Shown: positions 21,281 through 39,720 of the stretch, in pieces
Position numbering within the stretch: the first letter of the stretch is position 1
How the letters are laid out: every line of letters begins with the position of its first letter
Assembly (NCBI GenBank): GCA_944323775.1
Contig: CALUTT010000028.1
Location: 35,119-99,118, forward strand
DNA from: an uncultured Bacteroidales bacterium
GTDB taxonomy: Bacteria > Bacteroidota > Bacteroidia > Bacteroidales > UBA932
DNA: 64,000 nt
Direction: 5' to 3'
The notes under the pieces: model-generated
The model's input: only the letters and a program-made list of their open reading frames with translations
Told to the model about the DNA's origin: nothing
Database searches by the model: none
Position numbers and translations under genes: made by a program

Positions 21281-22768
21281 ATGGCTGACTACATACAGAT
21301 CAATCCTTCCGACAATGTGGCCGTCGCGCTTCGAGACCTTCCTGCAGGAGTGCGGGTGCGGTCTATGCAGGGCGACGTCACTGTGCTGGAGGCCATTCCC
21401 CAAGGGCACAAGGTGGCTCTCAAGGACTTCCGTGCCGGGGAGAACGTCGTCAAGTACGGATTTCCTATAGGGCACACGGCATGCGCCGTAAATGCAGGGT
21501 GCCTGCTGGACGAGAGGAACGTGAAGACCAATCTCTCGGGGCTGGACACGTATTCATATACGCCCGACTTTTCAGCGCCTGAATTCGCCGACGAGGGCAG
21601 AACCTTCATGGGCTACCGCAGACGCGGAGTCGGAGTCGGAGTCCGCAACGAGATATGGATAATACCGACGGTCGGCTGTGTCAATGGCATAGCTGAGGAA
21701 CTGTCCCGTATGCTCAGGCAGGAGACAGGCTGCCGCGGGGTGGACAACATAGCTGCCTATACCCACAACTACGGCTGTTCCCAGCTTGGAGACGACCACG
21801 AGAATACCCGCAGGATACTGCGCGACATGGTGCGGCATCCCAATGCCGGAGGTGTGCTTGTCGTAGGACTCGGCTGCGAGAACAACCAGCCGGAGGCATT
21901 CATGGAGTCGCTCGGGGATTATGACAGGACGAGGGTGAAGTGTCTTGTCTGCCAGAAGTCGGGGGACGAGATAGGGGATGGGATGACGATGCTGCGGGAA
22001 CTCTATGCTGCGGCAAGCCGTGACAGACGGGAGGCTGTCCCCTTGTCTGAACTCAGGGTCGGCCTGAAATGCGGAGGCTCTGACGGGCTCTCCGGCATAA
22101 CTGCCAACCCTCTGCTCGGAATGTTCTCCGATTATCTTGTTGCCCAGGGCGGAACGACGGTCCTGACCGAAGTGCCGGAGATGTTCGGCGCCGAGACTAT
22201 CCTGATGCAGAGATGCCGGACCGAGAAGGTCTTCAACGATATGGTGTCAATGATAAACGGGTTCAAGAAATACTTTCTGGACAACGGACAGCCGGTCTAT
22301 GAGAACCCCTCGCCAGGCAACAAGGCTGGCGGCATCTCTACCCTGGAAGAAAAGTCCCTGGGATGTACGCAGAAATCCGGAACCTCAGAGGTTGTCGACG
22401 TCCTCGGATACGGGGAGCGTCTCAGACTCCGTGGCCTGAATCTGCTCTCGGCTCCTGGCAACGACCTTGTGGCGAGTACAGCTCTCGCTGCCTCCGGATG
22501 CCACCTTGTGCTCTTTACAACAGGCAGGGGGACTCCGTTCGGGACCTTCGTGCCCACGCTCAAGATATCGACGAACACCGCCCTTTACGACAAGAAGCGC
22601 AGATGGATGGATTTCGATGCCGGAACCGTTGCGGAGGGCGAACCGCTTGCCGAGCTGTGCCGCAGCTTTACCGAGAGAGTCATCTCTGTTGCCAGCGGCA
22701 CAAGGGCGAGGAATGAGGAGAACGGCTACGCCGAGATAGCCATACTCAAGACGGGGGTGACGCTGTAA
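21281..22768 (+). CDS. uxaA: Altronate dehydratase
   Basis: A 495-residue UxaA: an N-terminal SAF domain (residues ~1-90, ending in the KVALKDFRAGENVVKYG strand pair and IGHTACAVNAG) and the large UxaA catalytic domain (NEIWIIPTVGCVNGIA, NYGCSQLGDDHENTRR, LKCGGSDGLSGITANP). It dehydrates D-altronate to 2-keto-3-deoxy-D-gluconate, which KdgK and KDPG aldolase (not in this window) would take on. Last gene of the operon; the ATG follows a purine-rich GGAAGAG. Confidence 0.92.
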   Translation: MADYIQINPSDNVAVALRDLPAGVRVRSMQGDVTVLEAIPQGHKVALKDFRAGENVVKYGFPIGHTACAVNAGCLLDERNVKTNLSGLDTYSYTPDFSAPEFADEGRTFMGYRRRGVGVGVRNEIWIIPTVGCVNGIAEELSRMLRQETGCRGVDNIAAYTHNYGCSQLGDDHENTRRILRDMVRHPNAGGVLVVGLGCENNQPEAFMESLGDYDRTRVKCLVCQKSGDEIGDGMTMLRELYAAASRDRREAVPLSELRVGLKCGGSDGLSGITANPLLGMFSDYLVAQGGTTVLTEVPEMFGAETILMQRCRTEKVFNDMVSMINGFKKYFLDNGQPVYENPSPGNKAGGISTLEEKSLGCTQKSGTSEVVDVLGYGERLRLRGLNLLSAPGNDLVASTALAASGCHLVLFTTGRGTPFGTFVPTLKISTNTALYDKKRRWMDFDAGTVAEGEPLAELCRSFTERVISVASGTRARNEENGYAEIAILKTGVTL

Positions 22769-22824
22769 TGTCGTTGCGCCCTAATAGTATCTAAAAAATA
22801 TTAGGTATAAAAAAGAAATTTGTA

Positions 22825-22832
22825 TATCTTTG
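22825..22832 (+). promoter_or_regulatory. -7 box of the HxlR gene
   Basis: TATCTTTG matches TAnnTTTG. It lies between the possible upstream start at 22820 and the ATG at 22868, so it decides the start at 22868. Confidence 0.5.
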
Positions 22833-22867
22833 CACATCGGACTGATTGTCCCGGTGTGTTGAATTGT

Positions 22868-23266
22868 ATGAAAAGATCCACGATTGAAGATGTCATGTTC
22901 CCCGGATGTCCGGTGCGCAATATCTTGTCCCGTATCTGCGACAGGTGGTCTCTGCTTGTATTTTATCTAATAGAAAGATCGGAGAGGGGCAGCCTGCGCT
23001 TTTCGGAACTCAGACAGCATATGCCGGACATTTCGCCGAAGATGCTCTCGACGACTCTGCGCACGCTTGAGGAGGACGGATACATTTCCCGTACTGTCTT
23101 TCCGGAAGTGCCGCCTCGCGTCGAGTATGCGCTTACGGAGCGGGCCGAAAGTCTGAAACCGGTTCTTGACTCGATGCTCGAATGGGGAGCCCGCAATATG
23201 GATGCAATAATGAGAGACCGCAAGAATGCACACGCACCGGCAGTTCCGGACAATGGTTCAAATTGA
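22868..23266 (+). CDS. HxlR-family winged-helix regulator
   Basis: A 132-residue single-domain regulator. The core CDRWSLLVFYLIERS, RFSELRQHMPDISPKMLSTTLRTLEEDGYISR and PRVEYALTERAESLKPVL is the classical HxlR winged helix. The family often senses quinones, aldehydes or redox state through a conserved Cys near the N-terminus; here it is in FPGCPVRNIL, present. It precedes the flavodoxin/ferredoxin gene at 23363 by 96 bp and probably controls it and itself. Confidence 0.9.
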   Translation: MKRSTIEDVMFPGCPVRNILSRICDRWSLLVFYLIERSERGSLRFSELRQHMPDISPKMLSTTLRTLEEDGYISRTVFPEVPPRVEYALTERAESLKPVLDSMLEWGARNMDAIMRDRKNAHAPAVPDNGSN

Positions 23267-23362
23267 TTGAAACAATATGAAAGCAGTGCAACTGGACCGC
23301 TATTCGACAAGGAAAGCGGCAAGGTTGTAATCAGAATACGGCAATAAATAGACTGTGGCAAT

Positions 23363-24121
23363 ATGATACGTGAGATAATCTTCAGCCCCACGGGCGGTAC
23401 GGAACGTGTGGCGCACATTATTGTTTCTGAACTTGGAGGAGAGTCCGGGCAGGTGGATCTGACTGACCGGCATATGGATTTCGGCGGAATATGTCTGAAC
23501 AGGGAGGACCTCGCTGTGATTGCTGTCCCGTCGTACGGCGGCAGAGTGCCGGCCATTGCCGCGGAACGTATCAGCAGGCTTCAGGGAAACGGTGTCGTTG
23601 CCGTCATAGCATGTGTATACGGCAACCGTGCCTATGATGATACTCTTGTCGAGCTTGAAGATCTGGCGAGGGGTGCAGGATTCCGTGTCATTGCAGCCGT
23701 TGCGGCCGTGGCAGAGCACTCGATCGCGCATCGCTATGCTGCGGGACGCCCCGACGCGCGGGACAGGGACAGACTGGTATCATTCGCCTCGCAGATAAGA
23801 CGCAAGATCGGAGACGAAGATTTCAGTGAACCTGCGGTTCCAGGGAATCATCCGTTCCGCAAGGCCGGGCGTGCCGGAATAATACCGAAACCAACGGGTG
23901 CATGCGTCAAATGTGGCCTCTGTGCCGCAAAATGCCCTTCAGGTGCGATTGACCCTGATGACCCGTCAAAGGTAGATTCCAAGGCATGCATATCATGCAT
24001 GCGCTGCATCTCCGTCTGTCCCCATGGAGCCAGAAAGGCAAGCCCTCTGATGATTGCCCTGGCGGACAGAATGCTTCGGAAGCCGTGCTCTGAGAGAAAA
24101 GAGTGCGAACTGTATATCTAG
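23363..24121 (+). CDS. EFR1-type flavodoxin-ferredoxin protein
   Basis: A 252-residue redox protein. Residues ~1-150 form a flavodoxin fold (IIFSPTGGTERVAHII binds the FMN phosphate; VPSYGGRVPAIAAERI; YGNRAYDDTLVEL). Residues ~175-235 form a two-[4Fe-4S] ferredoxin domain: CVKCGLCAAKCPSGAI and CISCMRCISVCPHGAR. Such EFR1-type proteins are putative electron carriers; their partners are mostly unknown. It is paired with the HxlR gene upstream, which suggests induction by a redox or electrophile signal. Its stop overlaps an AraC remnant on the other strand. Confidence 0.85.
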   Translation: MIREIIFSPTGGTERVAHIIVSELGGESGQVDLTDRHMDFGGICLNREDLAVIAVPSYGGRVPAIAAERISRLQGNGVVAVIACVYGNRAYDDTLVELEDLARGAGFRVIAAVAAVAEHSIAHRYAAGRPDARDRDRLVSFASQIRRKIGDEDFSEPAVPGNHPFRKAGRAGIIPKPTGACVKCGLCAAKCPSGAIDPDDPSKVDSKACISCMRCISVCPHGARKASPLMIALADRMLRKPCSERKECELYI

Positions 24122-24222
24122 ACGGAATTGAAAGAGTCTATCCTGTATTTCCTCGGGGAGACACCAGTCATTCGTCTGAAGTATTTCCCGAATACGGACT
24201 GTGACAATAAGTTCTCGACTCT
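24118..24222 (-). pseudogene. Remnant of an AraC-family regulator (C-terminal end)
   Basis: A short minus-strand frame reads SQSVFGKYFRRMTGVSPRKYR and then a stop. This is the last helix-turn-helix segment of an AraC regulator (compare SSFGKFFRNKSGISPQQYR in the AraC protein at 35852). It is closed upstream by a TAA at 24223-24225, and no other AraC sequence is visible upstream in any frame that I checked. It is a relic about 34 codons long. Confidence 0.6.
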
Positions 24223-24251
24223 TTAGCTGAGAGTGCATGAAAGGAAAAAAG

Positions 24252-24281
24252 ACAGGGAGCGCCGGAAATGACGCTCCCTGT
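24252..24281 (-). terminator. Terminator of the 24307-25728 lipoprotein gene
   Basis: ACAGGGAGCG (24252-24261) / CGCTCCCTGT (24272-24281), a 10-bp stem followed on the minus strand by CTTTTTTCC, 26 bp beyond the stop. Confidence 0.88.
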
Positions 24282-24306
24282 GTTGTCTGTATTGAAGTTT
24301 TTCCGC

Positions 24307-25728
24307 CTACTTGACTGAGTTCAGGAATTCGCGGGCAGACTCAAGCGTAACGGGACGGATGACCTTCTGGCCCCTCTTGGCAGGAACGCTGGCAGGTGAC
24401 ACTGCAGATGTAGCGGTCCCCGTTGTCGTGAACTGGGTCACTGTCATCTCTCCGTATCCGAGAGATCCGTTTCCGTTCATGGGGAAGCCGAGTGCGACAT
24501 AGTCGGTTCCCGGCTCGAACCCTGTCCAGATGTAGTCGTCATCGGCGAACATCGTGTAGCCGTAGACTGCGGCGTAATCCCTGACATAGTCTTCAGGCTT
24601 GTCATAACCATCTATGCCGGCACCGATCTCGAGAAGGGTGTTGTAGTCTTCAAGAGAAGAAATCATCTGGTAGTATGCACGGGTGTTTTCTCCCATGGTG
24701 TACTTGATGGTGGCCTGGGTGTCCCCGATACCGGATACCTCGATAGTCAGAGGAGAGGGAAGAGGAAGGGACTCGTCGGCAAATCCTGATGTGAATGAGA
24801 AGCTGCCGTATGAAACGGGCATGAGTGAAGAGTCGAATCCGACAACGCCCATGATGTAGTCATAGTTTTCGTATCCGTTCAGTGCTACGGTCATGTTCGT
24901 TCCGGCCTCGGTGTAGGGAACCATGCCGTACATCGCATACATCTCCAGCAGCTCGTCGATGCTCATTCCGAGGTCCTGAAGCACAGACTTGGAGACTACG
25001 AGCAATCCTGAGTATGCCTGGCTGTCATCGTAAACGGTTGACGTGAGGTCCATTGCGACAAGGTCGTATGCGTCTACGGTGAATCCGGCGCTTGCAGCCA
25101 TGATCTGCGAGGTGACAGTCTCGGACTCGACGCCTGACTCAGAGACGCCCTTTGCAAGCACGAAGTACGGTCCGATCGTGTCGCGTGCGACGCTCACGGT
25201 GTTGTCCGCACCGTCGACTGCAAGAGTCTGGATGTCCTTGAGCGAGCCGTCGGCGAATGCGGCCTTGAGGTCTTCAAGTGACTCCTGGACAGCGGAGGTG
25301 ACTGCATACTTGACTTCAGTAATTGCCTCGGACGGAGTGAACGTGATGTCGAAGCAGCCTTTGTTGCCGGCATAGCTGAGATTCATCCCCAGGGAAACGT
25401 CCTCCAGGTCAACCACGATGTTGGAGGTCTCGGAATCGAGGTATCCGCTTCCCGTTGCCCTTACACTGACTGTGTAGGTCCCGGCAGACATCCCGGTGAA
25501 TGTGACTTCACATTCTTCGACGATTGTCTCTGAGTCAGCTTCCTGGGTGCTGCACAGGTAGCTCTCGGCGCCTTCGACCGGCTGCCATGAAATGGTGAAC
25601 CAGTCAGGCCCTGCCCCGGACAAGGTCAACTGGGGACTTGCCAGCTGGGGCTGTCCTTTCTTGCAGGACGCCAGCGGCAACAAAGCAAACACAGCAAGTA
25701 CTGCTGTCAGGATTGCCATTTTTTTCAT
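24307..25728 (-). CDS. Surface lipoprotein with FN3-like repeats
   Basis: A 473-residue lipoprotein (signal ending LLPLASC). The mature part starts with an FN3-like domain (SPQLTLSGAGPDWFTISWQPVEGAESY) and continues with further beta domains, including GFEPGTDYVALGFPMNGNG, close in style to the MSPETHYYAVAFGVDLSG unit of the BACON lipoprotein at 3950. It ends in a basic segment, KRGQKVIRPVTLESAREF. It is very acidic and probably surface-exposed, with no enzymatic motif. The two proteins are probably members of one family with different N-terminal domains. Confidence 0.75.
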   Translation of the reverse strand: MKKMAILTAVLAVFALLPLASCKKGQPQLASPQLTLSGAGPDWFTISWQPVEGAESYLCSTQEADSETIVEECEVTFTGMSAGTYTVSVRATGSGYLDSETSNIVVDLEDVSLGMNLSYAGNKGCFDITFTPSEAITEVKYAVTSAVQESLEDLKAAFADGSLKDIQTLAVDGADNTVSVARDTIGPYFVLAKGVSESGVESETVTSQIMAASAGFTVDAYDLVAMDLTSTVYDDSQAYSGLLVVSKSVLQDLGMSIDELLEMYAMYGMVPYTEAGTNMTVALNGYENYDYIMGVVGFDSSLMPVSYGSFSFTSGFADESLPLPSPLTIEVSGIGDTQATIKYTMGENTRAYYQMISSLEDYNTLLEIGAGIDGYDKPEDYVRDYAAVYGYTMFADDDYIWTGFEPGTDYVALGFPMNGNGSLGYGEMTVTQFTTTGTATSAVSPASVPAKRGQKVIRPVTLESAREFLNSVK

Positions 25729-26032
25729 ACACTACTTGATTTTGAAGTTAATACTGGGTGCAAATATACAAAAAAATGTATAATATGCTGTACATTAGTA
25801 TATTGATTGTCCTTATAGTTTGTTATCATCGAGTGCCGTAAAAGGACGTAAAGTTATGTTTTCCTAAGCGCGGGATATGTGTTGGATAACAGTTTTTGAT
25901 ATTTCGGCCCGAAAATCTGAATGATTTTAAGATTGCATAGTCCTGCGGTTCATGTCGTATGTGCATGGGGCCCGCAATGAGGCGTTTAAAAAAAATCGTT
26001 TATTTTTGCGCCCTGAAATTTATGAATTGAAG
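25729..26032. other. Divergent intergenic region with two -7 boxes
   Basis: A ~300-bp AT-rich gap between the lipoprotein gene and the YeiH gene. It holds a minus -7 box TATATTTG (25761-25768) and a plus -7 box TATTTTTG (26001-26008). I see no RNA gene or repeat in between. Confidence 0.5.
26001..26008 (+). promoter_or_regulatory. -7 box of the YeiH-family gene
   Basis: TATTTTTG, exact TAnnTTTG, 25 bp upstream of the ATG at 26033; this excludes the longer in-frame start at 25952. Confidence 0.5.
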
Positions 26033-27061
26033 ATGAAACAGTCTGTTGAGAGAAGCGGAATGCTTCACGGCGCACTCCTGGTTGTACTTTTTTCGTGCGC
26101 GGCGACCTGTATCGGTGCGATGAGCTGGGTACAGGCGATTTCTTTCAGTCCTCTGGTCGTGGGCATCATAATAGGCATGGTTTACGCCAACACTCTCCGT
26201 TCCGGCCTGCCCGGAAGCTGGAATCCCGGAATTTCTTTCTGCTCAAAGCGTATTCTCAGGATCGGAATCGTGCTGTACGGTTTCCGTCTGAGTTTTCAGG
26301 ATGTGGCAGCAGTCGGTCTTCCCGCAGTGGCCGTCGATGCCATTGTCGTTGCCGGCACAATAGGTCTGGGGCTTGCCGTAGGCAAGTTGCTGAAGATGGA
26401 CAGGGAAACGGCTCTTCTCACCTCCTGCGGAAGCGCTATCTGCGGTGCGGCGGCGGTAATGGGCGTCGACGGCGCAATCCGTCCGCAGCCGTACAAGACT
26501 GCGGTGGCCGTCTCTACGGTGGTGATTTTCGGTACGGTGGCGATGTTTCTCTACCCGGTTGTTTTCCGCTCGGGTGTGCTTGACGTGAATGCCCCGCAGA
26601 TGGGAATGATTTCCGGTGCGACTATCCATGAGGTGGCCCATGTCGTCGGCGCGGGCAATGCCATAGGGCCTGAGGCCAGCAACATAGCGATTATCGTCAA
26701 GATGATACGCGTTATGATGCTCGTGCCCGTGCTTCTGGTGATTGCCTTCCTCTATGCCGGCAAGGCGGCGGAAAAGGGCGGCGGAAAGGGCAAGATCGCA
26801 GTTCCGTGGTTTGCCGTTCTGTTCCTTGTCGTTATCGGGTTCAATTCTCTGGACCTGCTTCCGGAGGGAGTGGTGTCGTTCATCAATTCTGCGGATACTT
26901 TCCTTCTGACGATGGCAATGACCGCTCTTGGTATGGACACGACCTTCGACCAGTTCAAGAAGGCCGGGCTCAAGCCGTTCCTGCTTGCGTTCGTGCTGTT
27001 CGTCTGGCTCATGGCGGCCGGATATTTGCTTGTCAGGTACCTTGTGCCTGTGCTGGCATAA
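26033..27061 (+). CDS. YeiH/UPF0324-family membrane transporter
   Basis: A 342-residue protein with about 10 membrane spans, belonging to the UPF0324 (putative sulfate exporter) family. Family marks include GIVLYGFRLSFQDV, LLTSCGSAICGAAAVMG, SGATIHEVAHVVGAG and ALGMDTTFDQFKKAG. Transport of sulfate or sulfite-like anions is suggested in databases, but the true substrate is not settled. The start at 26033 (MKQSVERSG) is picked because the promoter lies at 26001-26008. It stands alone, with the next gene under its own promoter. Confidence 0.85.
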   Translation: MKQSVERSGMLHGALLVVLFSCAATCIGAMSWVQAISFSPLVVGIIIGMVYANTLRSGLPGSWNPGISFCSKRILRIGIVLYGFRLSFQDVAAVGLPAVAVDAIVVAGTIGLGLAVGKLLKMDRETALLTSCGSAICGAAAVMGVDGAIRPQPYKTAVAVSTVVIFGTVAMFLYPVVFRSGVLDVNAPQMGMISGATIHEVAHVVGAGNAIGPEASNIAIIVKMIRVMMLVPVLLVIAFLYAGKAAEKGGGKGKIAVPWFAVLFLVVIGFNSLDLLPEGVVSFINSADTFLLTMAMTALGMDTTFDQFKKAGLKPFLLAFVLFVWLMAAGYLLVRYLVPVLA

Positions 27062-27066
27062 CTGAT

Positions 27067-27097
27067 TTTGCCGATTTGAGGCTATTTGATATTTTTG
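27067..27097 (+). promoter_or_regulatory. Promoter of the DUF5050-like lipoprotein gene
   Basis: TTTG (27067-27070), 19-nt spacer, TATTTTTG (27090-27097): a full -33/-7 match to the Bacteroidetes consensus. Transcription should begin near 27103, which favours the ATG at 27120. Confidence 0.7.
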
Positions 27098-27119
27098 CAA
27101 CCCGAAAATGCTGAATGTT

Positions 27120-28163
27120 ATGAAAACGAGTCAGATTGTTGTACTTTTCGCCGCTGCGGCGTTGCTGGCCGGCTGCGGCAAGAACCAGAATCCCGGTTCT
27201 CCCGACATTGTCTGCGGCGAGTACACCAGGATATGCAACATGGTCCCCTGTGTGGGCTGTGCGTCCGAGGACGGGGATGCCTTCTACTACTCCGTATTGG
27301 AGGGAGACTACCTTGCTCTTGTCAGGCAGAACAAGTCCACGGGGGTCAAGATGGTACTTGACAGGATACCGCGCCCTTCCGATTCGCGCACGGATTTCTC
27401 GTTCCAGTATATCATGGCCGACGGGAACTATGTATATTATATGCCCTTTGATGTCAGCGACTCTGACAACAGGACTTACAAGATCTGGAGGATAGGTAAG
27501 GACGGCTCCGGGAAGACCATGCTGTCCGGCCCTGACGATGTGCTGCTGGAGTATTATATTCTCGGCGACAGCATATATTACAGATACCTGTTCGGCAGCA
27601 GCGGGGTGTGGTCATGCGGACTTGACGGCAGCGGGGCGTCCCACCTGCTTGACAAGGAGATGAACTATCCGATCCTTTATTCAGGACGCTACTACTACAC
27701 TTCTTACACTGACTATCCTGTGATAAAGCTCGTCTCATGTCTGGAAGACGGCTCCGACGAGAAGCCGCTGATGGAGTGCGAAGGCAATTTCTGTTTCGCC
27801 ATCGGCGACAACGGCAAAGTGTACGTCGCCGCGCCGGGCCAGGAAGGATGGGAGATTCTCTCGATGAATACAGACGGAAGCGCCCTTCAGACTCTTGCTG
27901 CCGGGCTGCCAGGTGTCACTTACATCAATTCCCTTGGGGGAGATGTCTTCTTTTCATGCTATCAGGGAAGCAGCTCCCTTTCAGCCGGCCTTTACAGGCT
28001 TTCCGGCTCCGGCCTCAAGTGTCTTGTCAGCGCAAAGGTGATGAGTTTCTGCCTTCTCGACTCAGGACGCATCATCTACATGAATGCCGACGACACTTCA
28101 TGCGGAAGGCTCGGTGCATCGTACATGACAGACATCGAGGGCAGTTTCAACGACAAGCTTTAG
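27120..28163 (+). CDS. DUF5050-like beta-propeller lipoprotein
   Basis: A 347-residue lipoprotein (MKTSQIVVLFAAAALLAGC, lipobox LAGC). The mature part is a series of beta units with the pattern GNYVYYMPF / YKIWRIGKDGSGKTML / DSIYYRYLFGSSGVWSCGLDGSGASHLL / WEILSMNTDGSALQTL. This is the TolB/DUF5050-type propeller repeat, in which each blade displays a value followed by a D-G-S turn. No catalytic residues are seen; it is a likely outer-membrane or periplasmic binding protein. The ATG at 27108 is only ~5 nt from the predicted transcription start, so 27120 is preferred. Confidence 0.75.
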   Translation: MKTSQIVVLFAAAALLAGCGKNQNPGSPDIVCGEYTRICNMVPCVGCASEDGDAFYYSVLEGDYLALVRQNKSTGVKMVLDRIPRPSDSRTDFSFQYIMADGNYVYYMPFDVSDSDNRTYKIWRIGKDGSGKTMLSGPDDVLLEYYILGDSIYYRYLFGSSGVWSCGLDGSGASHLLDKEMNYPILYSGRYYYTSYTDYPVIKLVSCLEDGSDEKPLMECEGNFCFAIGDNGKVYVAAPGQEGWEILSMNTDGSALQTLAAGLPGVTYINSLGGDVFFSCYQGSSSLSAGLYRLSGSGLKCLVSAKVMSFCLLDSGRIIYMNADDTSCGRLGASYMTDIEGSFNDKL

Positions 28164-28196
28164 GCGGGCGGCGGACAGCCGTCTTGCGGCAGTGCA

Positions 28197-28242
28197 GGGT
28201 GCAGATCGAGCTTTCGCGAGATTTGCGCCCTTGCCGTTTTTT
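28197..28242 (+). terminator. Likely terminator of the DUF5050-like lipoprotein gene
   Basis: GGGTGCAGATC (28197-28207) pairs with GATTTGCGCCC (28220-28230, with wobble pairs), followed by TTGCCG and T6 (28237-28242). Confidence 0.65.
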
Positions 28243-28313
28243 GTCACATAGCCGAGTTTTGGATAAAGACGTTTGCCTTACGGAAATATTATAGTGCCTA
28301 ACAAAATACTGTC

Positions 28314-28400
28314 AAAAAAAAGTCTCCACGGAGTACGCGGAGACATAGGAATAAAATCCTTCGGCATATAGCCTTATTGTGGTAAGATGTAGAACTTACG
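28314..28400 (-). ncRNA. tracrRNA of the type II-C CRISPR system
   Basis: Minus-strand RNA of about 87 nt that guides Cas9 together with the crRNA. From its 5' end: an anti-repeat (28394-28377) that pairs with the first 19 nt of the repeat, as nine pairs (GATGTAGAA side), a 2x2 U-U internal loop, then seven pairs (TTGTGGT side). The linker AAUAA follows, then a nexus hairpin GGC-UAUAU-GCC (28373-28363), a second hairpin AGGA-UUUUAU-UCCU (28360-28347), and a terminator stem GUCUCC/GGAGAC (28344-28322) followed by U8 (28321-28314). The promoter lies directly upstream (28404-28435). This order is the standard tracrRNA plan. It also fixes the crRNA strand: the array must be read on the plus strand. 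Confidence 0.93.
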
Positions 28401-28403
28401 CTA

Positions 28404-28435
28404 CAAATATAGCCGTTTTTTGCCTGATTATCAAA
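28404..28435 (-). promoter_or_regulatory. tracrRNA promoter
   Basis: Read on the minus strand: TTTG (28435-28432), 20-nt spacer, TATATTTG (28411-28404). Both boxes match the Bacteroidetes consensus exactly, and transcription should start near 28398. Confidence 0.85.
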
Positions 28436-28452
28436 TAGTTTTCATAAATTTA
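28419..28452 (+). promoter_or_regulatory. Possible cas9 promoter, overlapping the tracrRNA promoter
   Basis: TTTG (28419-28422), 22-nt spacer, TAAATTTA (28445-28452, 7 of 8 to TAnnTTTG), 16 bp before the cas9 ATG. The spacing is slightly long. If real, it shares DNA with the divergent tracrRNA promoter. Confidence 0.35.
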
Positions 28453-28468
28453 CAAAAATTGTATTTTT

Positions 28469-31400
28469 ATGGAGAAAGTCTTAGGTCTGGATTTGGGAAC
28501 AAATTCCATCGGATGGGCTATTGTCCGTCATAATGATGACAAGTCATACTCATTACTTGATAAAGGCGTCAATATCTTTCAAGATGGTGTTGCTTATGAT
28601 AAAGGCGGAGAAAAGCCTGCAGTACAGGAAAGGACTGCGGCAAGAGCGTCCAGACGGCATTACAACAGGCGGAGACTGAGAAAAATTCAATTGTTGAGAA
28701 TCTTGGTTGAACAGAAATTATGCCCGTATATCTCAACGGAAGATCTTGACGAGTGGAAACTCCATAAGAAATATCCGCTGTCCGATGACTTCATTGCGTG
28801 GCAGAGAACAGATGAAAGTGCTGGGAAAAACCCTTATTTCGACAGATATCGTTGTCTGACGGAAGTCCTGGATATGAATAATCGTTCCGACCGTTACTGT
28901 CTTGGAAGAGCATTGTACCATATCGCGCAGAGAAGGGGTTTCCTCAGCAATAGAAAGGAATCCACAAAAGAATCCGACGGTGCTGTAAAGGCTGGAATTC
29001 AGGATATCACTGATGATATCAGAAAGGCCGGATGCGAATATCTCGGAGAGTATTTCTTTAAAATCTACGGAAGCCGGCAGAAGATTAGAAACAGATATAC
29101 TTCGCGTACGGACCATTATAAGAAAGAATTTGATGCAATTTGTAATAAACAGGCATTGGAGGATACACTAAGGATGCAGCTTGAAAAAGCCATCTTCTTC
29201 CAGCGGCCCTTAAAATCCCAGAAAGGCCTTGTAGGAAAATGTACATTTGAAAAAAGCAAGTCAAGATGTCCCGTATCGCATCCGCGTTTCGAAGAATTCA
29301 GGATGTTGGCTTTTATCAATAATATTCGTGTGAAAGACAATATTGACAATACCATACGCTCTCTTGATAACGTCGAAACCGAAAAGATAATTCCCTTGTT
29401 CTACAGGAAGAGTAAACCGCAGTTTAATTTTGAGGATATCGCCAAGACGATAGCAGGAAAAGGAAATTATACCGATGGTGAAGATAACGCAGACAAACGA
29501 TATTCATTTAATTTTAAAATGTATACGTCTGTGCAGGGTTCTCCTGTGACGGCAGGCCTCAAGACAGTATTCGGAGAAAATTGGGAAGACGCAATTTTCA
29601 GCAGGTATTTGCATTCACATGGCAAGACCAAAGACCAGGTCATCAATGATGTTTGGCACGTATTGTTTTCATTTGACAATGATGAAATGCTTTATTCCTG
29701 GGGCGTCAGAAATCTCGGGCTTTCGGATAAGGAAGCGGACGCTTTCTGTAAGATGACTATTCCTCAGGGCTACGCCTCATTAAGTCTGTGTGCAATCAAC
29801 AAAATCATGCCATATCTTCGGTCGGGTTGCAGGTACGATGAGGCGGTGATAATGGCTAACCTGGCGTCCGTTACAGGATATGCCAAAGACAGCCTGGAAT
29901 TGAATAGAATAAAGGAAAACGTCTCAATAATAATCGAAGACCATTCAAGGAATCCTCTGGAAAACAGCAAAAGTATTCAGAATGTCGTTGAAGACTATCT
30001 GAGAGGATGCTGTAACGTCGATGCCGCTCATTTGGCACGGCTCTACCATCCGTCAATGTTGGAACTGTACCCTCATGCGTCTGCAGAAAACGGCATATAC
30101 AAATTAGGCTCTCCAAGAATATCCTCTATCAGGAACCCTATGGCCATGCGCTCTCTTTTCCGTCTGCGGAAATTGCTGAATTTGCTGTTGCAGTCTAAGA
30201 AAATCGACGACAGGACAATTGTCCAGATAGAATTTGCAAGGGGGCTGAATGACAGTAATATGCGAAAAGCCATAGAACGCTATCAGAGGGAGCAGAAAAG
30301 AAAGCGTGATGATGCCATGACCAAGATTCAGGAACACTTCGGGAAACAATATGAACCGTCTGAGGCGGAGATCCTGAAGTATCTATTATGGGTAGAGCAG
30401 GATCATAGATGCCCTTATACCGGCAATGAGATTGGGATTGAGGATTTTATCGGGCCGAATCCAAAATATGACATAGAACATACGATTCCACGCTCCCTTG
30501 GTGGTGACAGTTCGCAGATGAATCTGACATTGTGCGAAAGCCGGTTCAATAGGGAGACAAAACGGACGACATTGCCTGCCATGCTGCCAAATCATGACAA
30601 AATAATGGCCGTCATCGAATCTTTCGGATGGGATAAAGAAATCGGACAGCTCCGGAAGCAGATAGAGAAAACCAAAACATATTCTTCGACAAAAGAGGAA
30701 AAAGACCGGAAGATACAGTACAGGCACTATCTTAAAATGCGGCTCGGTTATCTGGAAGGGAAGTTGAAAAGGTTTACGATGACTGAAGTACCTGAAGGGT
30801 TTTCGAACAGACAGGGAATTGATATAGGGATTATCGGACGCTATGCAAGATTGTATTTGAAATCTGTTTTCCAAAATGTCTACACGGTCAAAGGCGCTAC
30901 TACGGCAGAGTTCCGGAAAATGTGGGGACTGCAGGAAGAGTACTCGAAAAAGGAAAGGGATAGCTATGTCAATCATTGTATCGATGCGATAACCATAGCT
31001 TGTATAGGAAAATATGAATATCAGGAATGGGCCAGATACAGGAGGGACGAAGACGAATACTTTTTCTCAAGAGGTCCTAAACCCGTATTTCCGAAGCCAT
31101 GGCCCACTTTTACATCTGATGTTAAAACAGTGGCAGATTCACTTCTTGTGCCTCATTATACGGCGTCAAACCTGCCCAAACACACTAAAAAGAAGCTTAG
31201 GGTAAGAGGCCGTATCCAGCGTGACAAAGAAGGGAATCCAATTTACATGCAAGGGGACACTGCAAGATGTTCTCTTCACCAGACAACATTCTACGGAGCT
31301 ATTAAGAAAGATGACGAAATCAGATATGTCGTCAGAAAGTCGCTGGATTCATTGGATCCAGCGGACATTGATAAAATTGTGGATGATGCGGTAAGAGAAA

Positions 31401-32080
31401 AGGTCAGGAATGCAATTAAAGATAAAAGTTTCAAAGAAGCCATATCGGGAACGATATGGATGAATGAGGAACTTGGCATTCCAATTAAGAAAGTCAGACT
31501 GTATGTTAAAGACAAACCAATGCAACTGAAACTTCATCGTGACAAATCGGAGAAAGCGTATAAAAGATATGTCAATGTGATGAACGATTCAAATTACTGC
31601 ATGGCAATATATGAAGGTGTCAATGATCGTGGAAGGGTAGTGCGGTCCTATTTGGTCGTGAATAATCTGGATGCCGCAAAATTCTATAACGGCAAGACTG
31701 CCAAGGACAGTATTGTCCCATTATCTGACGACAACGACTTGCCTCTGAAATGCGTTCTGAAAACAGGTACTATGATACTTTTCTATGAAAAGTCGCCTAA
31801 AGAGCTGTACGATTGCTCAGAAGAAGAATTGTCAAAGAGATTGTATAAAGTGATTGGGCTTTCAGCAGGAAGTGACGGATATCCGTATGGCTCAATATTA
31901 TGTAGATTCCATTTGGAGGCAAGAAAATCATCAGAAATAAAGGCTAAGAACGGAGTCTGGAAAATAGGAGAAGATTATCGCCCGGTAATAAAAGTGCTGC
32001 ACACTCAAATCAAGGCATACGTTGAGGGTGAAGATTTTGAAATTTCCTTGGATGGTCATGTAACATTCAAACATTTGTAA
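28469..32080 (+). CDS. cas9: Cas9, type II-C RNA-guided endonuclease
   Basis: A 1203-residue Cas9. RuvC-I GLDLGTNSIGWA carries Asp8; the Arg-rich bridge helix follows (RASRRHYNRRRLRKIQLLR, ~60-77). A long alpha-helical recognition lobe includes YHIAQRRGFLSNRKE (~150) and spans to ~575. RuvC-II is VQIEFARGLND with Glu588. The HNH domain has CPYTGNEIG, YDIEHTIPRS with His671, and SRFNRETK with Asn694. RuvC-III is VNHCIDAITIA with His836 and Asp839. The remaining ~350 residues are the WED/PAM-interacting part. All catalytic residues are present, so it should cut both strands. It is mid-sized for type II-C, shorter than the ~1400-residue Cas9s common in Bacteroidetes. Followed by cas1 after 3 bp; no csn2 or cas4. 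The gene looks AT-richer than its neighbours. Confidence 0.97.
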   Translation: MEKVLGLDLGTNSIGWAIVRHNDDKSYSLLDKGVNIFQDGVAYDKGGEKPAVQERTAARASRRHYNRRRLRKIQLLRILVEQKLCPYISTEDLDEWKLHKKYPLSDDFIAWQRTDESAGKNPYFDRYRCLTEVLDMNNRSDRYCLGRALYHIAQRRGFLSNRKESTKESDGAVKAGIQDITDDIRKAGCEYLGEYFFKIYGSRQKIRNRYTSRTDHYKKEFDAICNKQALEDTLRMQLEKAIFFQRPLKSQKGLVGKCTFEKSKSRCPVSHPRFEEFRMLAFINNIRVKDNIDNTIRSLDNVETEKIIPLFYRKSKPQFNFEDIAKTIAGKGNYTDGEDNADKRYSFNFKMYTSVQGSPVTAGLKTVFGENWEDAIFSRYLHSHGKTKDQVINDVWHVLFSFDNDEMLYSWGVRNLGLSDKEADAFCKMTIPQGYASLSLCAINKIMPYLRSGCRYDEAVIMANLASVTGYAKDSLELNRIKENVSIIIEDHSRNPLENSKSIQNVVEDYLRGCCNVDAAHLARLYHPSMLELYPHASAENGIYKLGSPRISSIRNPMAMRSLFRLRKLLNLLLQSKKIDDRTIVQIEFARGLNDSNMRKAIERYQREQKRKRDDAMTKIQEHFGKQYEPSEAEILKYLLWVEQDHRCPYTGNEIGIEDFIGPNPKYDIEHTIPRSLGGDSSQMNLTLCESRFNRETKRTTLPAMLPNHDKIMAVIESFGWDKEIGQLRKQIEKTKTYSSTKEEKDRKIQYRHYLKMRLGYLEGKLKRFTMTEVPEGFSNRQGIDIGIIGRYARLYLKSVFQNVYTVKGATTAEFRKMWGLQEEYSKKERDSYVNHCIDAITIACIGKYEYQEWARYRRDEDEYFFSRGPKPVFPKPWPTFTSDVKTVADSLLVPHYTASNLPKHTKKKLRVRGRIQRDKEGNPIYMQGDTARCSLHQTTFYGAIKKDDEIRYVVRKSLDSLDPADIDKIVDDAVREKVRNAIKDKSFKEAISGTIWMNEELGIPIKKVRLYVKDKPMQLKLHRDKSEKAYKRYVNVMNDSNYCMAIYEGVNDRGRVVRSYLVVNNLDAAKFYNGKTAKDSIVPLSDDNDLPLKCVLKTGTMILFYEKSPKELYDCSEEELSKRLYKVIGLSAGSDGYPYGSILCRFHLEARKSSEIKAKNGVWKIGEDYRPVIKVLHTQIKAYVEGEDFEISLDGHVTFKHL

Positions 32081-32083
32081 ATT

Positions 32084-32971
32084 ATGATAAAGAGAACGCT
32101 GGCATTCACGAATCCATACCACCTGCGTCTGAAAAACCGGCAGATGATCATATCGGTTAAAGGAGATTCCGAACCATATGCTAGCGTCCCGGTTGAAGAC
32201 ATCGGTTTCGTCATTTTGGAGAATCAGGAGATAAGCATTTCTCTCCCTTTGCTTAATGCATTGACGGATAATAATGTAGTGGTTATAGTATGCTCTGATA
32301 AATTCATGCCCAATGCCATGTTCATGAATCTGAGCGCCAATTCGACCCAGGGTGAAAGTTTTAGAGCGCAACTGTCGGCGGCTGAACCTTTGAAGAAGAA
32401 TCTGTGGAAGCAGATTGTAGAGGCAAAAATCAGGAATCAGGCCGCTTTACTAAGCAAACTTGGGAAAGATGGAGATGCATTAAAGCCTTATTATCAAAAC
32501 GTGAAGAGCGGTGATTCTGGCAATAGTGAGGGAACTGCAGCCAGGTTATATTGGAGTGAACTTTTTGACAGAAGCTTCCAACGCTCCAGAGAAGGCTCTT
32601 GCCCAAATGAGTTGCTGAATTATGGCTATACAATACTACGTGCCGCCGTTGCAAGAGCACTGGCCGGGTCAGGGCTGTTGCCGTCAATAGGGATATTCCA
32701 CAGGAACAGATATAATCCGTTCCCTCTGGCCGATGATATTATGGAGCCATATAGGCCATTCGTGGACGAGATAGTCTTCTCCCTATATGCGAATGGGGAA
32801 AATTGTTTAAACAAGTATTCGAAATCTGAGATATTGAAACTGCTGTATGCCGATACATTTTTTGAGAATGTCACCAGACCGTTGGATATAGGGCTTTCTA
32901 TGACTACGGCCTCACTTGTCAAATGCTATAACGGCATGCAGAAGAAAATACTGTATCCGATGTTAAGGTAA
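32084..32971 (+). CDS. cas1: Cas1 integrase, type II
   Basis: A 295-residue Cas1. The metal-binding acidic/His triad is visible: Glu149 (GNSEGTAARLYW), His206 (GIFHRNRYNPFPLADD) and Glu221 (EPYRPFVDEIVF). The N-terminal beta domain (RLKNRQMIISV, FVILENQEISISLPLLNAL) is of the type II kind. With Cas2 it inserts new spacers at the leader end of the array. Begins 3 bp after cas9 and overlaps cas2 by 1 bp (TAATG), so the three genes form one transcript. Confidence 0.97.
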   Translation: MIKRTLAFTNPYHLRLKNRQMIISVKGDSEPYASVPVEDIGFVILENQEISISLPLLNALTDNNVVVIVCSDKFMPNAMFMNLSANSTQGESFRAQLSAAEPLKKNLWKQIVEAKIRNQAALLSKLGKDGDALKPYYQNVKSGDSGNSEGTAARLYWSELFDRSFQRSREGSCPNELLNYGYTILRAAVARALAGSGLLPSIGIFHRNRYNPFPLADDIMEPYRPFVDEIVFSLYANGENCLNKYSKSEILKLLYADTFFENVTRPLDIGLSMTTASLVKCYNGMQKKILYPMLR

Positions 32972-33312
32972 TGTCAGAAAACCGTATCAATGCATATCAT
33001 GTTATGTGGCTTTTTGTATTTTTTGATTTGCCTGTCATGACTAAAAAGGATAGAAAGGCGGCGACTCAGTTCAGAAAGGCACTGGAAAAAGATGGCTTCT
33101 CAATGATGCAGTTTTCGGTATATGTCAGACATTGCCCATCGAAGGAAAATATGGATGTGCATATTAAACGCGTACAACTTGCAATTCCGGACACCGGACT
33201 GGTTAGCGTTTTGTCCGTGACCGACAAGCAGTTTAGTAACATAAGGAACTTTTATGGGAAGGTAGATAAAAAAGTTCAGTTTGCTGTTGTCCAACAACTG
33301 GAATTATTTTAG
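32971..33312 (+). CDS. cas2: Cas2
   Basis: A 113-residue Cas2 of the type II-C kind: VMWLFVFFDLPVMTKKDRKAATQFRKAL is the first beta strand with the family Asp, followed by FSMMQFSVYVRHC and VSVLSVTDKQF. Acts as the dimeric core of the Cas1-Cas2 integrase. Starts by a 1-bp overlap with the cas1 stop. 108 bp separate its stop from the first repeat. Confidence 0.96.
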   Translation: MSENRINAYHVMWLFVFFDLPVMTKKDRKAATQFRKALEKDGFSMMQFSVYVRHCPSKENMDVHIKRVQLAIPDTGLVSVLSVTDKQFSNIRNFYGKVDKKVQFAVVQQLELF

Positions 33313-33420
33313 TATCTTGCAAAAACGCATCAATCACCACTTCCTTGGTATGCGGCGCATAAGTTTTACTTGGAATCTAAGTATATAACTAGCGTTAAAT
33401 CAGGCATTAAACAGGCTAAG
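33313..33420 (+). promoter_or_regulatory. CRISPR leader
   Basis: A 108-bp AT-rich gap between cas2 and repeat 1, on the side where repeats are identical. No clear TAnnTTTG box is seen, so the array may be read through from the cas genes or from promoters that I cannot identify. Confidence 0.6.
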
Positions 33421-33902
33421 GTTGTGGTTTGATGTAGAAGATGAATAAAGTACAACGTGTTGCTATTCCAGAGAAGAGGTATCCAGTTGTGGTTTGATGT
33501 AGAAGATGAATAAAGTACAACTGTTATGGAAATGAATGAAGACCTACGACGTTGTGGTTTGATGTAGAAGATGAATAAAGTACAACCGCGGGGCTCTTGC
33601 CCGTCTTGCCTTGACGGTTGTGGTTTGATGTAGAAGATGAATAAAGTACAACAGATTCTATTTGTTAGAATCACTATATGCGTTGTGGTTTGATGTAGAA
33701 GATGAATAAAGTACAACCATCAATTCAGCATTATGGGAAAACTGACAGTTGTGGTTTGATGTAGAAGATGAATGAAGTACAACTTCAAAGTGTTTATAAG
33801 ATGGCTCGTCTGTGTTGTGGTTTGATGTAGAAGATGAATGAAGTACAACCGGGTATCTATGGCAGCGCAAAAGGAAAGGTTGTGGTTTGATGTGATGTAG
33901 AA
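33421..33902 (+). CRISPR. Type II-C CRISPR array, 7 full repeats plus a rearranged terminal repeat
   Basis: The 36-bp repeat starts GTTGTGGTTTGATG and ends AAGTACAAC, with terminal complementarity GTTGT/ACAAC. Repeats start at 33421, 33486, 33551, 33617, 33682, 33748 and 33814; the seven spacers are 29 or 30 bp. Repeats 6 and 7 share one change (AATAAAG to AATGAAG), and the eighth copy at 33879 keeps 15 nt, then repeats GATGTAGAA and loses the rest. Degeneration at the far end shows that the cas2 side is the leader end. The first 19 nt of the repeat pair with the tracrRNA, so crRNAs are read on the plus strand as spacer followed by repeat 5' part. Confidence 0.98.
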
Positions 33903-34106
33903 TGTTTCGGCTTGATTGATTGGCTTTATTCAACTACGTCTCCGTATATTTATGAACATCGCACCACTAGGATTGTGATTGACTATTGTACTTTCTAGAA
34001 CCATATTGATATGGATTGTTGTAGTTCATTCTTTGCTGCTTATGTGCCAGTACTCTCTGAGCAGTGAAATATGGAGTGATGTCATCCACATGGTTGTAAT
34101 TATTTA

Positions 34107-34673
34107 TTATTTGTGACCAGTCGTCTTCATCATTTCAGCCGAACGCTTTTCCCATTCGTCTTTGGTAATCAGGGAGAAGTGCTCTGTTCGGACATCGCCC
34201 AAGGGAGAGATCTTTCCCTCTTCCGTGTGGTGAAACCGGAAACCGCACTTGTCCATCACTCTGCGGGATCTGATGTTTCCGTCATAATATCCGCACCATA
34301 CTCTATCTATGTCAAGAGCGTTGAAGCACCGTGCCAGAAGGCATCTGACCGCTTCCGGAACGAGGCCTCGTCCCCAGTAGGGAACGCCGATCCAGTATCC
34401 TATCTCGGCATCATTTTCCTTCATTTCCGCACTGTGCACTCCGTTGCCGAACATAATGCCGGCGCTGCCGACAGGCTCATCTGTTTCTTTCAGGACCAAG
34501 GCATAAGTCTCGGGAGCTGAAAGAATATTTCTTATCACTTCTCTGCTGTTCCCGACAGACGTATGAGGAGGCCAGCCTGCAATAGGCCCGACCGCCGGGT
34601 CCCGTGCATACTTGTATAGCGATTCCGCATCTTCTTCTGTCCATGCTCTGAGTATCAGCCTGTCTGTCTCCAT
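34107..34673 (-). CDS. GNAT-family N-acetyltransferase (RimJ/RimL type)
   Basis: A 188-residue acetyltransferase of the RimJ/L group: METDRLILRAWTEEDAESLYKY at the start, the GYWIGVPYWGRGLVPEAV acetyl-CoA loop (with RG as the reduced Q/RxxGxG/A motif) and a C-terminal VMDKCGFRFHH strand. It moves an acetyl group from acetyl-CoA to an amine; ribosomal-protein N-termini, antibiotics and small amines are all substrates in this family. It lies alone, 205 bp from the CRISPR array and divergent from the Fur-family gene. Confidence 0.85.
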   Translation of the reverse strand: METDRLILRAWTEEDAESLYKYARDPAVGPIAGWPPHTSVGNSREVIRNILSAPETYALVLKETDEPVGSAGIMFGNGVHSAEMKENDAEIGYWIGVPYWGRGLVPEAVRCLLARCFNALDIDRVWCGYYDGNIRSRRVMDKCGFRFHHTEEGKISPLGDVRTEHFSLITKDEWEKRSAEMMKTTGHK

Positions 34674-34820
34674 TGATCTTTATTCCTGAAATGTATCTGC
34701 AATATTCCGACGTTTCCGTAAATGTACAAAAAATCTTGCATCGAACCGGAGAGTCCAGATAATGTGCATTGCGATTATGGTTATTGTGATTCGTGAAACA
34801 ATTATTATTGGGTGTTTAAT

Positions 34821-34852
34821 TGCAAATTATTTGCATTTGCGAATAATTTGCA
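34821..34852. promoter_or_regulatory. Twin palindromic operators of the Fur-family gene
   Basis: TGCAAATTATTTGCA (34821-34835) is a perfect 7-1-7 palindrome. TGCGAATAATTTGCA (34838-34852) is the same motif with one half-site change. Their centres are 17 bp apart and they cover the -33 box and the spacer. The 7-1-7 form is that of Fur/PerR/Zur operators, so autoregulation is likely. Confidence 0.75.
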
Positions 34853-34861
34853 TTAAGTTTG
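34830..34861 (+). promoter_or_regulatory. Promoter of the Fur-family gene
   Basis: TTTG (34830-34833), 20-nt spacer, TAAGTTTG (34854-34861): full consensus. Transcription should begin near 34867, which rules out a start at 34859. Confidence 0.8.
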
Positions 34862-34870
34862 CCGCAGATA

Positions 34871-35296
34871 ATGAAAGACATGATGGACAGTAAGGAATTT
34901 GAAATAATCAAGGAGGCAGGACTGAAGCTGACTCCGCAGCGCAGGAAGGTGTATGAGGCGATGCTCCAGCTCAGGCATGCCACAGTCGAAGACATCATAA
35001 GCCTCGTGCAGTCGTGGGACAGGGATGTGACGGTGTCGACTGTCTACCGCATCCTTGACAGTTTCTGCTCGGCCGGCATACTGTCTTTCATGTACCATCC
35101 GGATACAGGCAAGTGTTACTATGACATTACTGTCTCCGAACACCACCACCTCTTCGACGGGAACACTGTCGAGGATTACTCCGACCCAGAACTCTCGCGC
35201 ATGATCCGTGAATACCTCGTGCGCAAGGACTTGAAGCCGGAACAGATAGGGAAGATTCAGGTACAGGTAACCCTGAAAAATAATGTCAAACTTTAA
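34871..35296 (+). CDS. Fur-family metal or peroxide-type regulator
   Basis: A 141-residue Fur-family protein: winged helix GLKLTPQRRKVYEAM and VTVSTVYRILDSFCSAGIL, then the dimer domain with SEHHHLFDGNTVEDYS. The His cluster that binds the regulatory metal is present, but the CxxC pairs that hold the structural zinc in Fur, Zur and PerR are absent. It ends in VQVTLKNNVKL. Start ATG at 34871; 34880 and 34883 are alternatives. The twin palindromes upstream suggest autoregulation, and the QueD-like gene 14 bp downstream is in the same operon. Whether it senses iron, zinc or peroxide cannot be decided from sequence. Confidence 0.87.
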   Translation: MKDMMDSKEFEIIKEAGLKLTPQRRKVYEAMLQLRHATVEDIISLVQSWDRDVTVSTVYRILDSFCSAGILSFMYHPDTGKCYYDITVSEHHHLFDGNTVEDYSDPELSRMIREYLVRKDLKPEQIGKIQVQVTLKNNVKL

Positions 35297-35310
35297 AAAC
35301 CGCTTTTGTC

Positions 35311-36790: not shown

Positions 36791-36910
36791 TTCTGCCTGC
36801 AAAGGTAGCATTTGTTCCGTAATTGACCAATCATGGTCTCTGTTTCAACATCGTGGAACGGAATTGATTTGCGACCTTTGCAGTCCGGAAAATTCTAAAT
36901 GATTTGGAAT

Positions 36911-38806: not shown

Positions 38807-38807
38807 C

Positions 38808-39503: not shown

Positions 39504-39524
39504 GAGTTCCGGTTTGTTCTTGGG

Positions 39525-39696: not shown

Positions 39697-39720
39697 CAAT
39701 TGATGCCAAAGATTTTAGAT

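What the first reader, a model, noticed from the sequence alone, without database searches (positions are those of the whole stretch)
28314..28411. tracrRNA gene with full promoter, anti-repeat, nexus and terminator
In the gap before cas9 the plus strand carries TTGTGGT-AA-GATGTAGAA, which matches the repeat start TTGTGGT-TT-GATGTAGAA at 16 of 18 positions. Read on the minus strand it is an anti-repeat, directly followed by a GGC/GCC nexus hairpin, a second hairpin, and a GUCUCC/GGAGAC stem with U8. A perfect TTTG-N20-TATATTTG promoter ends a few bases before the predicted 5' end. This is a complete tracrRNA for a Cas9 that I cannot match to a characterised one.
Basis: partly seen in the sequence, partly recalled or inferred. 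Interest (0 to 1): 0.85.

Follow-up and report, generated by a model that had tools for sequence, protein, structure and literature searches.

The report
Ordinary type II-C tracrRNA gene
Next to a gut bacterium's Cas9 gene sits the complete small-RNA gene that Cas9 needs to use its CRISPR guides; it is of a known kind, with one unusual detail: the RNA seems to start with a small hairpin that folds over its own guide-binding stretch.

Summary
The minus strand at 28435-28314 carries a TTTG-N20-TATATTTG promoter, an anti-repeat matching 16 of 18 repeat positions, a GGC/GCC nexus, a second hairpin and a 9-bp terminator stem with U8. A covariance model built from 34 relatives, with the window and its nearest relatives left out, finds it at 103 bits (E 2.5e-23). 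Anti-repeats change together with repeats in relatives (three compensated changes in L052, one in L062). (1) The tracrRNA 5' end has a conserved, probable hairpin (RUAAG/CUUAY) starting about 5 nt after the -7 box and folding over the anti-repeat. (2) Arrays of this clade keep the leader-side repeat intact and decay at the far end, the reverse of the polarity one paper states for II-C. (3) The array leader holds an inverted half-repeat, mostly 76-78 nt before the first repeat. All of this is sequence evidence; no RNA was measured.

The parts
28404..28435 (-). tracrRNA promoter, TTTG-N20-TATATTTG (Bacteroidota -33/-7 type; consensus recalled)
   Evidence: the -7 box sits at a near-constant distance in relatives
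28382..28399 (-). probable 5' hairpin of the free tracrRNA: GUAAG (28399-28395) with CUUAC (28386-28382); loop UUCUACAU
   Evidence: supported across relatives, not significant on the window sequence alone
28377..28394 (-). anti-repeat; pairs with repeat nt 2-19 except a UU:UU internal loop
   Evidence: co-changes with the repeat in L052 and L062
28363..28373 (-). nexus hairpin GGC-UAUAU-GCC
28347..28360 (-). second hairpin AGGA...UCCU
   Evidence: not in the consensus fold, whose alignment is gappy there
28314..28344 (-). intrinsic terminator: 9-bp stem GUCUCCGCG/CGUGGAGAC and U8
   Evidence: stem covaries in relatives
28469..32080 (+). cas9, 1203 aa; RuvC D8, E588, H836, D839; HNH H671, N694 (roles assigned from recalled motifs)
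32084..32971 (+). cas1, type II (TIGR03639)
32971..33312 (+). cas2
33328..33343 (+). leader motif CATCAATCACCACTTC: imperfect inverted half-repeat ending 77 nt before the first repeat
33421..33905 (+). CRISPR array: seven 36-nt repeats (33421-33849), a decayed eighth from 33879, seven spacers of 29-30 nt

Best explanation
This is the tracrRNA gene of a type II-C CRISPR-Cas9 system in a gut-type Bacteroidales genome. An RNA of about 85-90 nt starts near 28403-28397 on the minus strand and ends at the U8 terminator. Its anti-repeat pairs with nt 2-19 of each repeat in the pre-crRNA, leaving a UU:UU internal loop. The duplex, nexus and 3' hairpins are bound by Cas9, and host RNase III probably trims the duplex, giving dual-RNA-guided cleavage. 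Before pairing, the anti-repeat is probably held in a 5' hairpin (GUAAG/CUUAC) whose loop, UUCUACAU, is free to start pairing with the repeat's AUGUAGAA. Shown by sequence: the gene parts, their conservation and the repeat/anti-repeat co-change. Inferred: transcription, processing, Cas9 binding, the hairpin and its role.
For: All parts present. Best anti-repeat in locus and genome. A model built from 34 relatives, without the window, L001-L003 or L043, scores the window at 103.1 bits, E 2.5e-23; in the genome it is the only match at E <= 0.001 among 150 scored of 348 candidates. It finds 13 of 15 other loci not used to build it at E <= 4e-4. L052's repeat and anti-repeat changed together at three pairs (a fourth became G:U), and its native duplex beats all 44 swapped tracrRNAs; L062 shows a T:A to A:T double change. 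Terminator stem pairs are standard in 40 to 45 of 45 rows per pair, with several pair types. Cas9, Cas1, Cas2 and array adjoin; catalytic residues intact and nearly invariant in 56 full-length proteins, window included. 5' hairpin: of 49 loci with an RTAA arm and a typed partner, G:C 34, A:U 9, G:U 6, A:C 0; in one fixed register 290 of 348 cells form standard pairs, against 172 at most in 15 shifted registers.
Against: No RNA data. 0 of 7 spacers (19-20-nt 3' parts, exact matches only) were found in the viral collection, so no target or PAM is known. The last repeat is decayed. L061's own tracrRNA pairs with its repeat no better than most others (35 of 44 equal or better), L125's no better than 11 of 44. 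For the 5' hairpin: the window alone is not significant (0.107 of leader shuffles as good; 24 of 58 loci at or below 0.05); L005, L058, L060 and L062 lack it, and L059, L064, L112, L120 and L128 fold best some other way; the consensus fold used for the model does not contain it, nor does a consensus fold of 50 anchored rows or of the 33- and 34-nt length classes, though the 31- and 32-nt classes show it; the tree-based pair test has too few independent changes.
Confidence: 0.95

Rival explanations
1. The element is a decayed or inverted stray repeat, or a dead tracrRNA, not a working gene.
For: The array is short and its last repeat is decayed; spacers have no exact hits in the viral collection.
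Against: Promoter, nexus, hairpins and terminator are intact and recur in relatives, with co-change of repeat and anti-repeat. Cas9 catalytic residues are intact.
Confidence: 0.03
2. The RNA has a second job: it also guides Cas9 to an internal promoter to regulate cas genes, like the long tracrRNA form described in type II-A (recalled).
For: The tracrRNA and cas9 are divergent with a short shared promoter region.
Against: The long form needs a 5' extension with guide-like sequence (recalled). Here 9 nt lie between the -7 box and the anti-repeat, and most of those fit the hairpin. Starts further upstream were not searched for.
Confidence: 0.05
3. The GTAAG...CTTAC palindrome at the 5' end is a DNA operator or a start-site signal, not an RNA hairpin.
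For: The arm sits at a near-constant distance (+5 in most loci) from the -7 box, and consensus folding recovers the hairpin in only some subsets.
Against: G:U combinations, which keep an RNA stem but break a DNA palindrome, occur in 6 of 49 loci, and A:C never. The spacing between arms varies, 8 to 11 nt and 24 in L110. Distant loci with different anti-repeats (L110, L111, L065) fold with longer leader arms matching their own anti-repeat. Leaders dealt at random among loci pair less well: 0 of 1000 deals reach the native count, though relatedness is not controlled.
Confidence: 0.25

Closest known systems
Neisseria meningitidis / Geobacillus type II-C tracrRNA and Cas9 (recalled)
   Same: Cas9 with cas1 and cas2, 36-nt repeats, anti-repeat followed by a short nexus-like stem and a terminator. 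The best solved-structure matches of the window's Cas9 are chains of 1082-1095 aa labelled only Cas9; that these are Geobacillus and Neisseria proteins is recalled.
   Different: The best-matching stretch to those chains is the HNH/RuvC region, about residues 530-910. The tracrRNA differs in sequence, and no promoter box of the host's type lies inside the repeats (0 of 50).
Bacteroidota II-C systems of Riemerella anatipestifer (PMC5006608) and Prevotella intermedia (PMC5608340)
   Same: cas9-cas1-cas2, anti-repeat upstream of cas9, leader between cas2 and the first repeat (abstract and passages seen). In P. intermedia the tracrRNA was judged to run opposite to the cas operon, as here.
   Different: Those have 47-nt repeats; the P. 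intermedia one has another sequence. The P. intermedia authors could not strongly predict a promoter; here one is clear.
Type II-C array architecture as stated in PMC12080349
   Same: Subtype II-C gene set.
   Different: The paper states that II-C acquires spacers at the last repeat and that each repeat has its own promoter (passages seen). Here 28 of 40 arrays have an intact first and a mutated last repeat, 0 the reverse, by a rule applied at both ends.

Membership tests
tracrRNA of type II CRISPR-Cas | anti-repeat complementary to the CRISPR repeat, outside the array, near cas9 | tested here: met
   16 of 18 at 28394-28377, the only exact pattern site outside the array in the genome
tracrRNA of type II CRISPR-Cas | nexus and 3' hairpins followed by an intrinsic terminator | tested here: met
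tracrRNA of type II CRISPR-Cas | co-evolution of anti-repeat with repeat | tested here: met
   compensated changes in L052 and L062; 40 of 45 repeats share TTGTGGTTTGATGTA and cannot tell; L061 does not fit
tracrRNA of type II CRISPR-Cas | transcribed small RNA, processed with crRNA by RNase III, bound by Cas9 | not testable with these tools
   needs RNA-seq and biochemistry
type II-C CRISPR-Cas | no cas4 | tested here: met
   cas9-cas1-cas2 are followed directly by the array; Cas_Cas4 model: no match in the own genome (94.5% complete) while 8 of 14 control genomes match
type II-C CRISPR-Cas | no csn2 | tested here: inconclusive
   none between cas2 and the array; Csn2 model: no match in the own genome, but also none in the 14 control genomes, so absence elsewhere is not shown
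type II-C CRISPR-Cas | Cas9 with HNH and split RuvC domains and catalytic residues | tested here: met
   TIGR01865, HNH_4, RuvC_III; D8, E588, H671, N694, H836, D839
type II-C CRISPR-Cas | Cas9 groups with II-C Cas9s in a tree with named II-A, II-B and II-C references | not tested
   no named reference set was aligned; closest solved sequences only
II-C array architecture as stated in PMC12080349 | promoter inside each repeat and acquisition at the last repeat | tested here: not met
   0 of 50 repeats hold a TAnnTTTG box (other promoter types and junction-spanning boxes not tested); last repeat has 3 or more mismatches in 26 of 40 arrays, first repeat in 0 of 40; acquisition itself not observed
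Rfam RNA families | match to a curated family | tested here: not met
   0 matches at gathering score in the window; two weak matches far below cut-off, E 0.16 and 0.75

The most novel reading that the evidence does not exclude
tracrRNAs of this Bacteroidia II-C clade begin with a conserved hairpin that locks the 3' half of the anti-repeat and displays its 5' half in the loop. The RNA would then be a self-sequestered, loop-first pairing partner, like plasmid antisense RNAs, which opens only on a crRNA repeat and so guards an RNA made in excess against misuse or decay.
Probability: 0.4. Interest if true: 0.55.

Novelty: new member of a known kind. Interest (0 to 1): 0.35.

Why it matters
The verified repeat and tracrRNA would give a guide-RNA design for a Cas9 clade of gut Bacteroidales that I could not match to a characterised Cas9 (literature only partly searchable here). 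Beyond that, the clade offers two testable departures from what is stated for type II-C: a tracrRNA that appears to hide its own anti-repeat, and arrays with II-A-like polarity and a leader motif at near-fixed distance. If confirmed, the second would limit a generalisation made for all of II-C.

Tried and rejected
Rfam gave nothing at gathering score and two weak matches. Cas9 relatives in viral contigs: no pattern match. Spacer targets: 0 of 7 spacers, so no PAM; spacers were not compared with the own genome or plasmids. Papers holding repeat or tracrRNA strings: 0, and 2 of unrelated subject by title. Papers with tracrRNA, anti-repeat, sequester and stem-loop: 1 listed, on E. coli interference, not read. 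Leader-motif papers: none with 4 of 5 terms; three listed and not read. Characterised Cas9 of Alistipes or Bacteroidales: 5 listed, none on it by title. Passages only were seen of PMC7606464, PMC10278012 and PMC11043407; their supplementary tables could not be read, so this tracrRNA type may be listed there. A promoter box inside the repeats was considered and not found.

A first polarity count defined the first repeat by a stricter rule than the last; one search repeated it with one rule at both ends and gave the same numbers (rule met by chance in 0 of 809 blocks inside cas9). Several of the 40 arrays are from close relatives, so they are not independent.

Dropped rows: of 67 loci examined, 58 entered the hairpin count. 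Dropped were L004, L063, L114, L116, L117 (no strict -7 box), L049 (duplicate), and L095, L115, L144 (no ATAAGGC). Arrays in reverse orientation (L065, L112, L114, L115, L117) were left out of the leader, polarity and duplex counts. For the model, 35 tracrRNAs that bear RTAAG, have a U-tract and are not the window's nearest relatives were listed, and 34 were used (L052 left out).

Full report
What is there. The plus-strand gap before cas9 (28469-32080) carries, read on the minus strand, TTTG-N20-TATATTTG (28435-28404), a 5' leader of nine bases, an anti-repeat (28394-28377), a GGC/GCC nexus, an AGGA/TCCT hairpin and a 9-bp terminator stem with U8 ending at 28314. The fold of 28400-28316 is -27.5 kcal/mol, z -4.84, with 0 of 200 shuffles as good. 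Every element in the finding is present at its coordinates; the terminator stem is longer than stated.

More than chance. The anti-repeat is the best ungapped non-array match to the repeat complement in 22000-40000 (16 of 18; next 14 of 18). In the whole 1.7 Mb genome the only exact matches to the 18-mer with two free positions are this site and the seven repeats; four more sites have 3 mismatches, and the pattern read backwards has four hits. The promoter pattern alone is weak evidence: 4 matches against 0.27 expected. The strongest test is a held-out one. A covariance model built from 34 tracrRNAs, without the window, L001-L003 and L043, scores the window at 103.1 bits, E 2.5e-23; the next matches are array repeats at E above 1. 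In the own genome it is the only match at E <= 0.001, with 150 of 348 first-look candidates scored. Of 15 other loci not used to build it, 13 have a match at E <= 4e-4; L095 and L144 have none.

The system. Cas9 (1203 aa) matches TIGR01865 at 442 bits, Cas1 the type II model TIGR03639, Cas2 TIGR01573; PADLOC agrees. The array has seven 36-nt repeats and a decayed eighth. No Cas4 was found in the genome, with a working control; the Csn2 search had no positive control and shows nothing beyond the locus itself. Putative catalytic residues D8, E588, H671, N694, H836 and D839 are intact and among those nearly invariant in 56 full-length proteins, window included (roles assigned from recalled motifs). 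Related Cas9s at E <= 1e-100 occur in 16 of 398 genomes of the family and 13 of 393 of the order, and at E <= 1e-90 in 9 of 395 of the class, 33 of 200 of one other family and 2 of 40 of one other genus. The first three counts each include the window's own genome, and the sets overlap.

Co-evolution. Of 45 loci with both parts, 40 repeats share TTGTGGTTTGATGTA. L052's repeat differs (ATTGCGGTTTGGTGTAAAAC) and its tracrRNA carries three matching changes, while a fourth pair became G:U. Its native duplex (-26.7) is better than with any of 44 other tracrRNAs (mean -14.1). L062 has T8 to A with the partner A to T; 1 of 44 others pairs as well. L125 and L143 (G7 to A) pair with a U that also occurs in other relatives; 11 and 3 of 44 others pair as well. 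L061 does not fit (35 of 44). Across 46 distinct 3' parts the nexus is nearly constant and the terminator stem varies by compensatory changes, for example G-C 23, A-T 15, T-A 1 and G-T 1 at one pair, with 40 of 45 rows standard there.

Of 67 loci examined, 58 distinct tracrRNA genes with a strict -7 box were compared. In 44 of 58 there is RTAAG, mostly at the fifth base after the box, able to pair with CTTAY inside the anti-repeat: GTAAG with C 32, ATAAG with T 7, GTAAG with T 5. Nine loci have weaker 4-nt versions, four have no such arm by this rule, and L062 has no CTTAY. Allowing RTAA, pairs are G:C 34, A:U 9, G:U 6, A:C 0 of 49. In one fixed register (+5 to +10 against the anti-repeat) 290 of 348 cells are standard pairs; the 15 shifted registers give at most 172. 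With leaders dealt among loci the mean is 279.8 and 0 of 1000 deals reach 290; for the first pair 52 of 58 against a mean of 44.1, again 0 of 1000 (relatedness not controlled). Mean energy of the 5' part is -4.04 native against -1.61 with shuffled leaders. C-type anti-repeats have -4.36 with G-type leaders and -1.85 with A-type; T-type ones have -4.49 with A-type and -4.22 with G-type. Distant loci with changed anti-repeats (L110, L111, L065) fold with longer leader arms that fit their own sequence.

Against the hairpin. The window by itself is not significant (0.107 of shuffles as good) and only 24 of 58 loci are at or below 0.05. L005, L058, L060 and L062 lack it, and L059, L064, L112, L120 and L128 fold best otherwise. 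The consensus fold of the model alignment does not contain it (the aligner did not line up the arms), nor does that of 50 anchored rows, where native and shuffled arms alike gave no structure. By length class it appears in the 31-nt (7 rows) and 32-nt (6 rows) classes but not in the 33-nt (15) and 34-nt (17) classes. On the Cas9 tree there are six independent pairs differing in the anti-repeat base; the leader follows in 2.7 on average and opposes in 0, too few for significance. I take it as a probable conserved element that keeps the free RNA folded and offers UUCUACAU in a loop to start pairing with the repeat. The UU of the internal loop, which does not pair with the repeat, is invariant in 58 of 58; Cas9 recognition could explain that without the hairpin.

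The array side. In 40 arrays with both ends in view and at least four repeats, the first repeat is intact and the last mutated in 28, both intact in 11, both mutated in 1, and the reverse in 0. The same rule applied at both ends gives the same counts and no decayed unit before the first repeat; three or more mismatches occur in the last repeat of 26 and the first repeat of 0. In the window repeats 6 and 7 share one change absent from 1-5, and repeat 8 is decayed. This suggests acquisition at the leader end. PMC12080349 (passages seen) states for II-C that spacers are acquired at the last repeat and that each repeat has a promoter; here 0 of 50 repeats hold a TAnnTTTG box. Two Bacteroidota papers already place the leader between cas2 and the first repeat (PMC5006608, PMC5608340; passages seen).

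The leader motif. Leaders hold a motif close to CATCAAACCACTTC, the complement of repeat nt 4-14 plus TTC. Counting only A[CT]TTC, its end lies 76-78 nt before the first repeat in 34 of 49 leaders; the next most frequent position, 28, has 5. L059's motif is a perfect complement, and L052's matches both changes of its repeat there, though about 20 nt nearer to the array; L004 and L061 do not follow their repeats. Leader:repeat pairing is no better than most shuffles in loci such as L046, L057, L063, L130 and L143, and in the window 6 of 200 shuffles do as well. The near-constant spacing, and AT-rich positions near -57, -34 and -19, favour a DNA-level role in spacer integration over an RNA hairpin with the first repeat. 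This is inference.

Verdict. As a tracrRNA it is a new member of a known kind, so the base interest is low; the 5' hairpin and the leader and polarity observations raise it somewhat.

Noticed in passing
window 33328-33343; L059, L052 and others (leaders): Array leaders of this clade hold an inverted half-repeat (about CATCAAACCACTTC) ending 76-78 nt before the first repeat in 34 of 49 leaders, with AT-rich positions phased between. It may be a docking site for spacer integration, or may pair with the first repeat in the leader RNA.
   Followed up: partly
window 33421-33905; 40 arrays of relatives: Arrays keep the leader-side repeat intact and decay at the far end (28 of 40, 0 the reverse), opposite to the polarity stated for type II-C in PMC12080349.
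   Followed up: partly
window 28419-28452, + strand: A weaker promoter-like pair (TTTG-N22-TAAATTTA) facing cas9 overlaps the tracrRNA promoter, so the two genes may compete for polymerase; the TAAATTTA part is seen in the nearest relatives.
   Followed up: no
window 33879-33905: The last repeat contains a short internal duplication (GATGTGATGTAGAA), so the seventh spacer may no longer give a working crRNA.
   Followed up: no
L065, L112, L114, L115, L117: In five more distant relatives the array found lies in the opposite orientation to cas9, and in L065 the anti-repeat looks longer.
   Followed up: no
window 27108-28163 and 25952-27061, + strand: Upstream neighbours: a protein with a DUF5050 domain and a YeiH-family putative sulfate exporter; nothing ties them to the CRISPR system.
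   Followed up: no
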